From positions 1-35,584 of the IMG/VR virus record IMGVR_UViG_3300023223_000205: DNA of 35,584 nt; one strand, 5' to 3'. Positions 4,828-17,745 of this stretch are shown piece by piece. Source of the stretch: a virus. The translations under genes and the position numbers were made by a program. The notes beneath the pieces are model-generated. The model searched no databases, was not told the DNA's origin, and was given only the letters and a program-made list of their open reading frames with translations. How positions within the stretch are numbered: position 1 is the stretch's first letter; the number at the start of each line of letters is the position of its first letter.

Positions 4828-4881
4828 GATCGATATTTTAACACAGTTTCTTCCTCTCTCTAAAAAGTAGCAATATGCAAT

Positions 4882-5539
4882 TGGGTTTCATTTATGGAAT
4901 GGCTCACAAATCCTTCGTGGGTTTCAGCGATTGTATGGTTCGGATCATTCAATTGGGTTTCATTTCTCAAGTGGCTCACACATGGTCGATGGGTTTCATT
5001 AATGGCTTGGCTCACATCGATAGACTGGGTTTCAGTTATATGATGGTTCACATTGTCAGGTTGGGTATCAATCCAGTGGTGGTTCGCACACTCAACTTGG
5101 GTTTGAATTCCTTTTAAGGCTCGTAGGTTGACACTGGGTATCACTGATTCTCTGGCTCGAATTCCGGGCTTGGGTTTCATGCTTTTCCGGGCTCGTATTT
5201 TTTCATTGGGATTCAAAGCGAATATGTCTCGAAGTGTTCTTATGGTGTTTACATTTTTTATGGCTCGAATTTTCACTCTGGTTATCAAGTGGCGTATGTC
5301 TCGCAGGGCTTTTTGGGTTGATACAGATAGCTTGGCTCGTATATACATAGTGGATTTCAAAGGAAGGATGGCTCGAATTCTGACTATGGGTTTCAATGAA
5401 AATGTGTCTCGCTGTGAAAGTGTGGGTTTCAACTCTTGTATGGCTCGAATGGTGATGTTGGGTTTCAGCCTTTTCTTGGCTCGAATGCTACAATTGGATT
5501 TCAACAACTGTTTGGCTCGAAAATTCTCTAAGGATTTCA
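4882..5539 (-). repeat. TIGR array: about 18 units of 36 bp with two 9-nt boxes and two 9-nt spacers each
   Basis: Read on the plus strand, box 1 (consensus TGGGTTTCA) begins at 4882, 4918, 4954, 4990, 5026, 5062 and 5098. It then resumes at 5135, 5171, 5207 and so on every 36 bp to 5531. Box 2 (consensus TGGCTCRNA) begins exactly 18 bp after each box 1. The 9-nt stretches between boxes are all different. On the minus strand, the tas orientation, the boxes read TGAAACCCA and TNYGAGCCA. Nine box 1 copies are exact and the others differ by a few bases. The single irregularity is a 10-nt spacer in the unit at 5098. The array starts 7 bp after the tas stop codon. Period, dual boxes, paired 9-nt spacers and neighbour all match TIGR arrays, which are processed to 36-nt tigRNAs. 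Transcribed strand is inferred. Box 2 ends CTCA in four of the six leftmost units and CTCG in all others. Confidence 0.88.
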
Positions 5540-5545
5540 TAATAA

Positions 5546-6433
5546 CTACGGCTGAATCTTACTCGTGTGACCCAACTTCTCAATCACATAAGGCTCACGA
5601 ACAGGCAGCCCCTCCATCTCTCTCCACTTTTCCCAGAGGTGAGAAAGGAAAATCTTAGTGGCCTTCCTCTTCGCTCTGGCATGGATGTGACCTTTGGAGT
5701 AGTCGGGATGCTTGATTGTGTCAGCGTGTTTGGCGTCGTCAAAGATGTCTCTATAACGTCCTCCACATCTGACAAATGATTCACCGATTTTCCAACAAAG
5801 AGTTTTCAAAAACGAATTCCAGTTGGCAATTTGTCCAGCTTTTCTTTTGGCCGCAACTCTTTCAACCGTGATGTCATCGCCCCAACAATAACCCTTGAGA
5901 AGTCTTGTGATCTCAGCTTCAACATCTGTTTTCTTATCAGACCTGTCAACGTATTGTTGAGCGAATGGTTTGATAAATTCTCTCGCTGCATATTCAGAAG
6001 TGAACCATCTCTTTCCAGACTTGGCGTCAACCTCATAAGTGTGAAGACCGGCATAGGCCCAGAGACTTGAGATCGTATCAAACCGTTCAATACTTTTTCC
6101 ATACTTCTCAGATTCAGATCCAATAGAAGCAATGATTCCGGCGGCAATGACAGGCCCAACACCTTTGACATCTTCGAGAAAGTAATTCCAGATCGGACGC
6201 TCTCTCACCCATCGGGCCATTTCTGATCTGATCTCTTCCTCTGCTGACATTAATTTATCTGCCATGAAGTCGTGAAGATATTCAGCATCGGATTCAGGAA
6301 CAATGTCATCTCTAACCAAGGCTGAGATTCGGTTGCCTGTTTGAATTCTTTCTTTCTGAAGACTGTAATAAGTTCCGACAAGAAGCTTTGCAGCCTCAAG
6401 TGATGTTACTTTTGAAGGGATCTTTTTTCCCAT
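5546..6433 (-). CDS. tas: TIGR-associated (Tas) protein, nuclease-less type: Nop/IS110-C-terminal-like domain
   Basis: The 295-residue protein has an N-terminal helical region (1-80) and a helix-hairpin-helix at 85-105 (EDVKGVGPVIAAGI). Then come F118...WAYAGL at 125-130 and a C-terminal HIHARAKRKATKIF...LWEKWRE at 249-272. These are the signatures of the IS116/IS110/IS902 transposase C-terminal domain, which is related to the snoRNP Nop domain. The DEDD/RuvC-like catalytic half of IS110 transposases is absent and I see no HNH motif, so it should bind rather than cut (TasA-like). There are no IS ends. It lies directly upstream of the 36-bp array on the same strand. Its own leader (AGCTAGAAAGGA 7 bp before the ATG) and a terminator upstream separate it from the SSB genes. 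Known of the family: Tas uses 36-nt guide RNAs for sequence-specific DNA binding. Role in this phage is unknown. Confidence 0.85.
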   Translation of the reverse strand: MGKKIPSKVTSLEAAKLLVGTYYSLQKERIQTGNRISALVRDDIVPESDAEYLHDFMADKLMSAEEEIRSEMARWVRERPIWNYFLEDVKGVGPVIAAGIIASIGSESEKYGKSIERFDTISSLWAYAGLHTYEVDAKSGKRWFTSEYAAREFIKPFAQQYVDRSDKKTDVEAEITRLLKGYCWGDDITVERVAAKRKAGQIANWNSFLKTLCWKIGESFVRCGGRYRDIFDDAKHADTIKHPDYSKGHIHARAKRKATKIFLSHLWEKWREMEGLPVREPYVIEKLGHTSKIQP

Positions 6434-6456: not shown

Positions 6457-6487
6457 TTAAAATAAACCCGGAGGAACACCCTCCGGG
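6457..6487 (-). terminator. Intrinsic terminator between the 72-residue gene and tas
   Basis: On the minus strand CCCGGAGG (6487-6480) pairs perfectly with CCTCCGGG (6474-6467) around a 5-nt loop, followed by TTTATTTTAAA. This is a strong 8-bp GC stem with a T-rich tail. It separates the upstream SSB/Sak4-like recombination genes from tas and the array, which would lower or separately control their expression. Confidence 0.75.
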
Positions 6488-6518
6488 CCGACACTTTCCG
6501 GGCTACCGAAATTGTGTC

Positions 6519-7194: not shown

Positions 7195-8118
7195 TCATTT
7201 CCTTTCTTGGATGATTGTTTGTAATCTGTTTCGTGTTTGATTCAATCGAGTGAGGGATGGATTTTTTCCCATGAAGCCCCTCACCTTGTCTTCAAGTTCT
7301 TTGTTGTCCAACGAGGCCAACATCTCTTCAACTTCTTTCGTCCTTTCGGCCTTCTTCATCTCAGGGGTAGCATCTAAATGCTCTCTTAGGGTAGGGTAAT
7401 CAAGGCGAATTCGGGGAGGCATTTCAAAACCGGCTCTGGACTTGACCTTCAAACCGGCCTGACCCTCGAAAATAATGTGTCTTGTTTTTTCTTTGAACTT
7501 GGCTTTGATCTTTCCGCCGTCGTCTTCATAGGTCTGGACATCACGGCAAATGTAACCAACAATGTCACACCAATCATAGAACATAGCCCATGAATGAGAA
7601 AACAAAGCGGCAGTCCTGATGCCATAATCTTCACCCAAAGGATCTTTCTCTTTGTTGATTCCATCGTGGGCGAGGATGACAACCTCCATGTCACGCTCGT
7701 TATTGATCTGATCGAGGAGGTTCAGGAATTGTTTTAAGACTTGTGTTGATGCGATAGGCCCCTGAGCGTATGCATTGAAGCCATTCTTACCTGTCTTCAT
7801 TCCTTTATAGTCGTTCTGTAAAACATATTCCTGACAGAGTTTTTCAATCCCGTCAACGGTATCAACGACAACTGTTTTCTTTTCATGTTTCGTTTCAAGA
7901 ATTTTAGTAGCCGCATCAAGACATTCTCCCCATGTCATACATCTCGGGAATGCCATGTCCTCTTCTTCAAGGTTGCCCAATCCATCTTCAGTGACTATGA
8001 AAATTGGGTTTTCGTATTCAGTGGCCAGAGTTGTTTTACCAATTCCTCCTGTGCCAAAATACATTTGTTTAGGTTTTCGTTTCTTAGGTTTCGCTAAGAA
8101 CTTGCTCAGTTCTTCCAT
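7195..8118 (-). CDS. Sak4-like RecA-fold ATPase (AAA_24), putative single-strand annealing recombinase
   Basis: A Walker A motif GTGGIGKTT lies at 22-30 and a Walker B-like KTVVVDTVDG at 81-90 (D86). A LAHDG segment at about 163 could carry the sensor. At 307 residues it fits the phage nucleotide-binding protein/AAA_24 family that includes Sak4, a RecA-core recombinase that anneals single strands and works with its cognate SSB. The C-terminal 60 residues are helical and charged. It has the AGCTAGAAAGGA leader, and the SSB-like gene follows immediately. The substrate role is inferred from family and context. Confidence 0.82.
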   Translation of the reverse strand: MEELSKFLAKPKKRKPKQMYFGTGGIGKTTLATEYENPIFIVTEDGLGNLEEEDMAFPRCMTWGECLDAATKILETKHEKKTVVVDTVDGIEKLCQEYVLQNDYKGMKTGKNGFNAYAQGPIASTQVLKQFLNLLDQINNERDMEVVILAHDGINKEKDPLGEDYGIRTAALFSHSWAMFYDWCDIVGYICRDVQTYEDDGGKIKAKFKEKTRHIIFEGQAGLKVKSRAGFEMPPRIRLDYPTLREHLDATPEMKKAERTKEVEEMLASLDNKELEDKVRGFMGKNPSLTRLNQTRNRLQTIIQERK

Positions 8119-15821: not shown

Positions 15822-16367
15822 ATGTTCAATATTGATGAACACGAACCACACATTGATCTGCTCAAATTAATTGAGAACTTGAGGAAATGTCACGAGAAAG
15901 GCATTGAGCCTCCTGAGATCCATCCTGATCTCAGACAGCCCTGCGTCATGTACTTTTTAGATGAGGGATTTCAAAAGGTTGAGATCGCTTCCATCCTCAA
16001 CATATCCCGTGGCACTGTTTACAACGATATTCAATCTTATGAAAAACGGGCCGAAAGTTCGGTCTTCTATGAAACAGTGGGCAAAGTAGCTGAAAGAATT
16101 AATAGGCGGTCGGATGTTTTGTATGCAAAAGCCATGCAGAATCGTGACTTGCGATTGGCTCACGATGTTGAATGTCGTCGGCAAGAGCGGCTGCAAGGAA
16201 TTGGAATGATTGAAAAAGTTCCTGAGAAGTTGGAGATAATTGATGGCACTTACGAAGGAAGAAATAAAGAAGACCTTATCGACTTACTCGCACAGAGAAT
16301 TGCTGAACGAACTGTTGAATCAGGACAAAGCGGAGAGACAGACGTGGTTAAACAATTGTCAGGATAA
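15822..16367 (+). CDS. terS: Terminase small subunit
   Basis: The 181-residue protein has a helix-turn-helix at about 50-70 (KVEIASILNISRGTVYNDIQSYEKR), helical oligomerisation segments, and an acidic C-terminus that would contact the large subunit. Small terminases bind the packaging site and regulate the motor. It precedes terL, which starts 125 bp before this gene ends. No good Shine-Dalgarno site is seen before the ATG; a 12-bp palindrome (15797-15808) lies just upstream. Confidence 0.8.
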   Translation: MFNIDEHEPHIDLLKLIENLRKCHEKGIEPPEIHPDLRQPCVMYFLDEGFQKVEIASILNISRGTVYNDIQSYEKRAESSVFYETVGKVAERINRRSDVLYAKAMQNRDLRLAHDVECRRQERLQGIGMIEKVPEKLEIIDGTYEGRNKEDLIDLLAQRIAERTVESGQSGETDVVKQLSG

Positions 16368-17745
16368 TTTCGATTACTTCTTTTTCAACTACTGTTTCAC
16401 CTCTACTGATGACGGACAGTGTAAAAAGATTCCAGACACATACACGTTCCTGACCGATCTTTACAAGAGGTGGAATGTTCCTGACACTCCGACATGCGAT
16501 GTTAAGTCAGCACAGAATTTGATTACATGGTTATCTGCATCAACGAATCTTCACGACATATTATTCAAACGTAATATTGATAACTGTTATATTTCAATTG
16601 GACAATTCGAATCATCTAAAGTAAAAGATCGTGTTCAGTTTCTTATTGACAATCTTCCCGAATGGTTTCTTCCCCTGCTTGGGTTGAAGCAAACAGGTGA
16701 ATCTAAAACACAGATTGAATTCACAAAGAATGGAAAAGAAAAATCAGCCATCATCTTCTTACACTCGGGTGAGAAGTCGGGGCGTTCACTAACCTTCTAT
16801 CGATCAACACTGGATGAGTTTGGCTTTCAACGTAATGCAAAGAAGATCTATGAAGGAATCAAAGGACGGACAATCTATCTGAACATCTTCTCGACGCCCT
16901 CCTACTCAAAGGCTGGATTCTTTTATAAACTGTGGACAGAGGGTTTTGTGCTTGGCGTTGACTGTTCGACAGTATCATTCGCTGACAACCCCGACAAAGT
17001 ACCGGGAACGGAGCAAGGTGATGCGTGGGCTGAGAAAAAAAGACGAGGCATGTCAGATGAGCAGTGGCGCAGAGAGCAAGGCTGCGAGTGGATCAGTGAA
17101 GGCGGCTTGGTTTATTCGACCTTTAGCCGGGACACTCACATGGTTGATCCTCTTGACCTTGATCCCAATTGGGATTACTTTTCTGGTCTTGACTTTGGTT
17201 GGGATCATCCTTTCGTCCACTTATGGGTTGCTCAAATCCCATGCGGCTCATGGTTCAGGTGGTACATCTTTGATGAGTTTTACAAGTCACATGTGTACCT
17301 TCAACAGATCTACGACGCTATCAACGACCGCGATCTATCTGTGCATGTATCAGGAGAGCCTCCCAATCAGTCAGAGTGGCGTATCAAAGACAAGTACCGT
17401 CAACGCATCTCTGATGCTGCCGGTAAACGTGAGCGGGAGGAATTGGCAAAATTAGGACTGTCAACTGAGCCTTCGGTAAAGGGTCATGACAGTGTTAATA
17501 CGAAGATCGGCAAGGTTCGCCATGCTCTTGAGATCAAGCCTGACGGCATCCCCGGATTGTTGGTTTCCAAAAATTGTGTTAAAACATTACTTGAATTCGA
17601 AAATTATATGTATCCAAAAGAAGTGTTGGATGGCGAACACGGCGACAAGCCTTTAAAGAAGTTTGACCATTCAATGGACGTGATTGGTGATATTCTGATG
17701 ACAGTGAGTGAGGTTAGGCATGAAGAGATTGCTTTCAATTGGTAG
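16243..17745 (+). CDS. terL: Terminase large subunit
   Basis: The start is the ATG at 16243, with GGAG upstream, overlapping terS by 125 bp. The 500-residue protein has the ATPase half with Walker B STLDEFGF (D191, E192) and a degenerate Walker A region upstream. The RNase H-like nuclease half starts at YFSGLDFGWDHPF (about 313-325) and ends with FDHSMDVIGD near the C-terminus. It powers DNA packaging into the prohead and cuts concatemers. The late-gene order terS-terL-(MptE-like)-portal supports the call. Confidence 0.92.
   Translation: MALTKEEIKKTLSTYSHRELLNELLNQDKAERQTWLNNCQDNFDYFFFNYCFTSTDDGQCKKIPDTYTFLTDLYKRWNVPDTPTCDVKSAQNLITWLSASTNLHDILFKRNIDNCYISIGQFESSKVKDRVQFLIDNLPEWFLPLLGLKQTGESKTQIEFTKNGKEKSAIIFLHSGEKSGRSLTFYRSTLDEFGFQRNAKKIYEGIKGRTIYLNIFSTPSYSKAGFFYKLWTEGFVLGVDCSTVSFADNPDKVPGTEQGDAWAEKKRRGMSDEQWRREQGCEWISEGGLVYSTFSRDTHMVDPLDLDPNWDYFSGLDFGWDHPFVHLWVAQIPCGSWFRWYIFDEFYKSHVYLQQIYDAINDRDLSVHVSGEPPNQSEWRIKDKYRQRISDAAGKREREELAKLGLSTEPSVKGHDSVNTKIGKVRHALEIKPDGIPGLLVSKNCVKTLLEFENYMYPKEVLDGEHGDKPLKKFDHSMDVIGDILMTVSEVRHEEIAFNW

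What the first reader, a model, noticed from the sequence alone, without database searches (positions are those of the whole stretch)
4882..6433. A phage-encoded TIGR-Tas system: Nop/IS110-like protein plus 36-bp dual-box guide array
Sequence: a 295-residue protein with the IS110 C-terminal/Nop-like signatures (KGVGP, WAYAGL and an Ala-Lys-Arg-rich helix near the end) is followed, 7 bp after its stop and on the same strand, by about 18 units of exactly 36 bp. Each unit has two 9-nt conserved boxes and two 9-nt unique stretches. Established: TIGR-Tas systems pair a Nop-domain Tas protein with arrays processed to 36-nt tigRNAs carrying two short spacers, and Nop is structurally related to the IS110 C-terminal domain. 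Inference: this is a working RNA-guided DNA-binding system used by the phage against competitors or to control host or phage genes.
Basis: partly seen in the sequence, partly recalled or inferred. Interest (0 to 1): 0.97.

Follow-up and report, generated by a model that had tools for sequence, protein, structure and literature searches.

The report
Phage TIGR-TasA RNA-guided DNA binder
This phage carries a gene and an array of paired 9-letter guides belonging to the recently described TIGR-Tas class of RNA-guided DNA-binding systems, in its nuclease-free TasA form; it is a real and apparently maintained member of a known kind whose targets could not be found.

Summary
A 295-aa gene (5546-6433, minus strand) is followed on the same strand by 19 guide units (36 bp, one of 37) of alternating 9-nt edge (T-T/G/A-CGAGCCA) and loop (TGAAACCCA) repeats with 9-nt spacers. 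The protein passes NCBI's curated TIGR-Tas family (185.7 bits, cut-off 100) and fails IS110's. Its closest solved relatives by sequence and fold are TasR and TasH. It has no nuclease domain, so it is of TasA type. Eighty IMG/VR relatives, a Microcystis phage and bacterial bins carry such genes, mostly with the same array layout. New supporting evidence: across 74 arrays, column 6 of an edge repeat pairs with column 3 of the NEXT edge repeat (799/809; 0 of 1000 shuffles reach it; other lags sit at the null). The window shows 17/17. This is the register of a processed tigRNA whose two ends pair, so the array behaves as guide RNA. No targets were found in the phage's own genome, in relatives' contigs, or in four exact scans of viral contigs. 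The likely mechanism is cleavage-free, tandem-spacer DNA binding; the biological role is inferred only. New member of a known kind, with an unusual edge repeat.

The parts
5546..6433 (-). tasA: 295-aa Nop-type RNA-binding protein, no nuclease domain
   Evidence: NF052498 TIGR_Tas_endo 185.7 bits vs cut-off 100, IS110 model 24.9 vs 140; PDB 9mty TasR E=3e-28, TasH E=9e-9; AlphaFold2 pLDDT 87, Foldseek best hits TasR and TasH; no HNH or RuvC in Pfam
4882..5539 (-). TIGR array: 19 units, alternating loop repeat TGAAACCCA and edge repeat T(T/G/A)(C/T)GA(G/A)CCA with 9-nt spacers A and B
5549..5557 (-). degenerate first edge repeat (ATTCAGCCG) overlapping the last codons of tasA
   Evidence: 18-nt phase from the first loop repeat
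5117..5539 (-). proximal sub-array: edge repeat mostly TTCGAGCCA or TACGAGCCA, lacking the box D G
4882..5088 (-). distal sub-array: edge repeat mostly TGTGAGCCA or TGCGAACCA; joined to the proximal one through a 37-bp unit (edge 5125 to edge 5088)
6465..6489 (-). terminator-like hairpin (11 pairs, 7 G-C) between the upstream gene and tasA
   Evidence: consensus match only, 3 sites found where shuffles give 2.0

Best explanation
A phage-borne TIGR-TasA system. The tasA gene and the array lie on the same strand, with the first edge repeat overlapping the end of tasA. The transcript is cut in the middle of each edge repeat into 36-nt tigRNAs (half edge, spacer A, loop, spacer B, half edge). A TasA dimer holds one tigRNA through the box C (CCA) and box D (TG) motifs of the loop and of the joined edge halves. 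Spacer A and spacer B pair with opposite strands of an 18-bp DNA target, with no flanking motif. As there is no nuclease, the complex binds, opens and bends the target, most likely blocking transcription or replication of competing elements or host genes. Shown here: gene, family, fold, array, tigRNA-register pairing. Carried over from Faure et al. 2025 (PMC12045711): processing to 36 nt, tandem-spacer targeting, DNA bending. Inferred: that this copy is expressed, and what it targets.
For: Family: NF052498 above its curated cut-off, IS110 far below its own; 32 of 36 relative records also above the cut-off, 0 of 14 control genomes. Fold: TasR 9mty E=4e-11, TasH E=1e-8, IS621 E=3e-4; profile search 9mty 1e-50, TasH 1e-32, IS621 8e-5. 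Layout: 65 of 81 relatives have a 36-bp array beside the tas gene; Microcystis phage Mvi-JY20 has a 241-aa Tas, 9 units and a hairpin plus T run at the end. RNA-level constraint: edge column 6 pairs with column 3 of the next edge in 799/809 cases vs 777.9 expected (sd 2.2), 0/1000 shuffles; lags -1, 0 and +2 at the null. Window alone 17/17 vs 14.7 expected, 114 of 20000 shuffles. PMC12045711 reports 36-nt RNAs with TasA, TasR and TasH, and pairs between different edge repeats of one tigRNA.
Against: No RNA or protein data for this locus. No target was identified. More than half of the window's edge repeats (11 of 18) lack the box D G, so the second edge pair (columns 2 and 7) fits in only 9 of 17 units. 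No terminator was found after the array. An open reading frame runs through the array (see rivals).
Confidence: 0.87

Rival explanations
1. A decaying TIGR locus: the array has lost box D in much of its proximal half and no longer makes good tigRNAs.
For: Edge column 2 is T, A or C in 11 of 18 edges; the 2-7 pair fits 9/17 in the window, against 95.8% over all arrays. The array is less uniform (0.53 at lag 36) than most relatives.
Against: The 3-6 junction pair is kept in 17/17 units despite changes on both sides; C8, C25, C26, T19, G4, A5 are invariant. L080, a Tas that is not close, has the same TT edge type (6/22), so it looks like a variant. tasA is intact.
Confidence: 0.08
2. The array is a coding repeat: a 226-aa protein (4860-5540, minus strand) read from an ATG shortly after the tasA stop.
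For: The frame stays open across all 19 units and across the 37-bp frame change; 0 stops at 72 in-frame spacer positions against 16 at 180 out-of-frame ones (Fisher p=0.007).
Against: Relatives' spacers (1575 distinct) show no clear in-frame stop depletion, and arrays of relatives are closed in all sense frames in 47 of 48 cases. Covariation is between RNA ends, not codons. The window frame was noticed first and tested afterwards.
Confidence: 0.03
3. An IS110-family transposase gene with flanking repeats (mobile element).
For: Pfam Transposase_20 weak match (16.6 bits, cut-off 21.3); PHROG 4285 is annotated 'transposase'; shared Nop-like C-terminal fold with IS621.
Against: IS110 model far below its cut-off (24.9 vs 140); no N-terminal catalytic domain, only 11 residues before the coiled coil; one copy only in this record; the repeats are a dual-repeat array.
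Confidence: 0.01
4. Role variant: the guides regulate the phage's own genes.
For: A nuclease-free binder could act as a repressor (a possibility raised in the Discussion of PMC12045711).
Against: The window's guides have no match better than 15/18 in their own genome, equal to shuffled pairings; 475 guide pairs of relatives and window against their own contigs show no excess over wrong-arrangement controls (71 vs 67, 67, 77 at up to 3 mismatches).
Confidence: 0.06

Closest known systems
TIGR-TasA (Faure et al. 2025, PMC12045711; e.g. Flavonifractor plautii FpTIGR)
   Same: Solo Nop-type protein, dual-repeat array with about 9-nt repeats and 9-nt spacers, array beside the gene, viral setting, UG...CCA box pattern
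   Different: Edge repeat lacks the box D G in 11 of 18 copies; one 37-bp unit; 19 units is more than the usual 5-15; no terminator seen after the array
Microcystis phage Mvi-JY20 tas locus (PP438412.1, annotated as hypothetical protein)
   Same: Nuclease-free Tas upstream of a 36-bp array, first edge repeat at the stop codon, repeats TGCGAGCC / CGAAACCC
   Different: 241 aa; 37% identity in the aligned part; 9 units; array ends in a hairpin with a T run
TasR (9MTY) and TasH (21KL, 9W03 and others)
   Same: Nop fold, tigRNA binding, shared C-terminal motifs
   Different: They carry RuvC or HNH nuclease domains; this protein has none
IS110/IS621 RNA-guided transposases
   Same: Related C-terminal fold (Foldseek E=3e-4)
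   Different: Single bridge RNA, catalytic DEDD domain, transposition
Box C/D snoRNP (Nop5/Nop56)
   Same: Nop domain and box C/D logic (per PMC12045711)
   Different: K-turn/L7Ae and fibrillarin; not among the fold matches listed

Membership tests
TIGR-Tas (TasA) | Tas protein with Nop domain, curated family score | tested here: met
   NF052498 185.7 bits vs cut-off 100; TasR and TasH are the best fold matches
TIGR-Tas (TasA) | Array of two alternating 8-12 nt repeats with about 9-nt spacers next to the tas gene | tested here: met
   19 units, 9/9/9/9 nt, 7 nt after the stop
TIGR-Tas (TasA) | Box D (UG) and box C (CCA) in both edge and loop repeats | tested here: inconclusive
   Loop: T 19/19, G 16/19; edge: CC mostly kept, but G of box D in only 7/18
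TIGR-Tas (TasA) | Ends of one tigRNA (two successive edge repeats) base-pair | tested here: met
   Window 17/17; all arrays 799/809 at lag +1 only
TIGR-Tas (TasA) | No nuclease domain (TasA rather than TasR/TasH) | tested here: met
   295 aa, coiled coil starts at residue 12, no HNH or RuvC match
TIGR-Tas (TasA) | Processing to 36-nt tigRNAs bound by Tas | not testable with these tools
   Needs small-RNA sequencing or pull-down
TIGR-Tas (TasA) | Tandem-spacer DNA targeting | not testable with these tools
   No target found in silico
IS110 transposase | Curated IS110 family score and catalytic domain | tested here: not met
   24.9 bits vs cut-off 140; no room for an N-terminal catalytic domain
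Coding repeat protein | Open frame conserved across relatives | tested here: not met
   47 of 48 relatives' arrays closed in all sense frames; no clear stop depletion in 1575 spacers

The most novel reading that the evidence does not exclude
A TIGR-TasA subtype in which the edge junction of the tigRNA has given up the box D G and its pair with box C, relying on a single junction pair (columns 3-6), so that the two TasA protomers see different boxes at edge and loop; the same edge type appears in the distant locus L080. In this phage the array may also be kept open for translation.
Probability: 0.15. Interest if true: 0.55.

Novelty: new member of a known kind. Interest (0 to 1): 0.42.

Why it matters
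TIGR-Tas was described in 2025, and its natural role, especially of nuclease-free TasA, is open. This adds a virus-borne TasA locus with 19 guide pairs in a phage lineage without close relatives in the collections searched. The wider comparison gives a sequence-only test of tigRNA function: pairing between one edge repeat and the next. That test marks arrays under RNA-level selection, fixes the strand and the unit boundary, and can screen other arrays for being alive. The lack of self-targets in the phage and its relatives argues against self-regulation.

Tried and rejected
IS110 transposase: rejected. Coding repeat: open frame tested and not a family trait. Self-targets: none. Targets in viral contigs: four guides scanned exactly with 0-2 nt gaps gave 6, 8, 0 and 1 hits, about what I would expect by chance in a collection of that size (my estimate, total size assumed). 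No contig was hit by a second guide with fewer than 3 mismatches. One exact match between relatives (L052 guide to L007 contig) is compatible with chance (about 0.1 expected, my estimate). Search with the single protein in viral contigs: none; an alignment was needed. Neighbour (Sak4-like) scan: none. Terminase scan: only distant partial matches. Rfam: no match. PADLOC: no match for the Tas protein. One search used a query to which I had added five residues that are not in the protein; it is not used. The target rule used (spacer A followed by the reverse complement of spacer B) is my derivation from the published 8-nt 3' overhangs and C-5 rule; other arrangements were scanned as controls.

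Full report
What is in the window. The window is a whole IMG/VR virus record of 35,584 bases, a tailed phage by its terminase, portal and tape measure genes. On the minus strand, 5546-6433 encodes a 295-residue protein. Directly after it on the same strand, from 5539 to 4882, are 19 loop repeats (TGAAACCCA) alternating with 18 clear edge repeats (TTCGAGCCA type near the gene, TGTGAGCCA type far from it), with 9-nt spacers between them. A degenerate first edge repeat overlaps the last codons of the gene. One unit is 37 bp and one loop repeat is displaced by a base; the rest keep 36. Identity at lag 36 is 0.533; resampled sequences never exceeded 0.345 over 19 lags.

What the protein is. It scores 185.7 bits against NCBI's curated family NF052498 'TIGR-Tas system RNA-guided endonuclease' (cut-off 100), and only 24.9 against the IS110 model (cut-off 140). 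The closest solved chains by sequence are 9mty (E=3e-28) and TasH (E=9e-9); 9MTY is the TasR structure of Faure et al. (PMC12045711). A structure predicted from the window protein and 47 locus relatives has mean pLDDT 87, and its best fold matches are TasR (E=4e-11), TasH (E=1e-8), then IS621 transposase (E=3e-4). No nuclease domain is found, and there is no room for one: the coiled coil begins at residue 12 and the open frame has 318 codons. The family name 'endonuclease' therefore should not be copied to this protein; it fits the TasA type.

Relatives. An alignment-based scan of IMG/VR gave 80 loci; with the Microcystis phage Mvi-JY20 these make 81, all with a Tas open frame. In 65 of 81, a period of 36 stands out beside the tas gene by an automatic criterion; L004 has 37. 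Mvi-JY20 has a 241-aa Tas with 9 units ending in a hairpin with a T run, listed only as hypothetical protein. Bins from prokaryote genomes with relatives include Moraniibacteriota, Nomurabacteria, Planctomycetota, Omnitrophota and others. The planctomycete locus L086 has nearly the same repeats as the window (TGCGAGCCA / TGAAACCCA).

Evidence that the array works as guide RNA. In the TasR structure the junction pairs of the edge repeat form between different edge repeats, i.e. the two ends of one processed tigRNA (PMC12045711). If so, column 6 of edge i should match column 3 of edge i+1, not of the same edge. I tested this in 74 non-redundant arrays with 883 edge repeats. At lag +1, 799 of 809 cases form a standard pair, where shuffling within arrays gives 777.9 (sd 2.2; 0 of 1000 reach it). 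Lags -1, 0 and +2 lie at their nulls. The combination C with A, which cannot pair, falls from 32 cases within an edge to 5 across edges. In the window alone the pairing is 17 of 17 (14.7 expected, 114 of 20,000 shuffles), although edges 14 and 18 (TGCGAACCA, TCCGAACCA) do not pair with themselves. Caveat: co-inheritance of whole units cut mid-edge could add linkage, but would not by itself produce complementarity. This supports selection on the tigRNA, gives the strand and the unit boundary, and speaks against translation as the array's function.

An unusual feature. The other junction pair (columns 2 and 7) fits in 775 of 809 cases over all arrays but only in 9/17 in the window and 6/22 in L080, because their edge repeats mostly carry T or A in place of the box D G. 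The two Tas proteins are not close. Whether this is a variant junction or partial decay cannot be decided from sequence.

Targets. From the published cut geometry I derive the target as spacer A followed by the reverse complement of spacer B, with 0-2 nt between. The window's 19 guides have no match better than 15/18 in their own genome, the same as shuffled pairings. With 845 distinct guide pairs of the family against 1.8 Mb, which includes the own contigs of 475 of them, matches with up to 3 mismatches in own contigs number 71, against 67, 67 and 77 for wrong arrangements. So self-targeting gets no support. Four guides scanned exactly in all viral contigs gave scattered hits and no contig matched by two guides. 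Targets remain unknown, as the discoverers also found for theirs.

Open frame. The array is open in one sense frame from an ATG at 5540 to 4860, including across the 37-bp unit; in-frame stops are rarer than out-of-frame ones (0/72 vs 16/180, p=0.007). Relatives show nothing of the kind as a rule. I treat it as chance or a local oddity.

Conclusion. A genuine phage TIGR-TasA locus, apparently maintained, of a kind described in 2025. Most likely it binds DNA at tandem 9+9 targets without cutting. The identity is close to certain (about 0.97); RNA-guided binding is likely (about 0.87); its use against competitors is plausible but unshown.

Noticed in passing
window 4860-5540 (-): A 226-codon open frame starts at an ATG shortly after the tasA stop and spans the whole array, surviving the 37-bp frame change; in-frame stops 0/72 vs 16/180 out of frame (p=0.007). 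Not seen as a trend in relatives.
   Followed up: yes
L080 (G032) and window edge repeats: Two distant Tas loci share a TT-type edge repeat (TTCGTGCCA, TTCGAGCCA) that lacks the box D G and breaks the otherwise near-universal 2-7 junction pair.
   Followed up: partly
L034:3596-4882 (similar lengths in L037, L043): Tas proteins of about 445 aa; L034 has an N-terminal helix-hairpin-helix domain matching the RNA polymerase alpha C-terminal domain (PF03118, E=1e-6), a possible Tas fusion to a DNA- or transcription-related domain.
   Followed up: no
L002 (Microcystis phage Mvi-JY20, 17730-26065): Complete TIGR-TasA locus, not annotated as such, in a named phage of Microcystis viridis, with a terminator-like end: a good experimental system.
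   Followed up: partly
L004 (IMGVR_UViG_3300034419_000018): Array with a period of 37 rather than 36 beside a Tas gene.
   Followed up: no
window 16240-17745 (+) and 7195-8118 (-): Terminase finds only distant partial matches and the Sak4-like protein none in the viral contigs: the phage has no close relative found in the collection.
   Followed up: partly
window 6465-6489 (-): G+C-rich hairpin with a T-rich tail just upstream of tasA, which would separate it from the gene before it.
   Followed up: no
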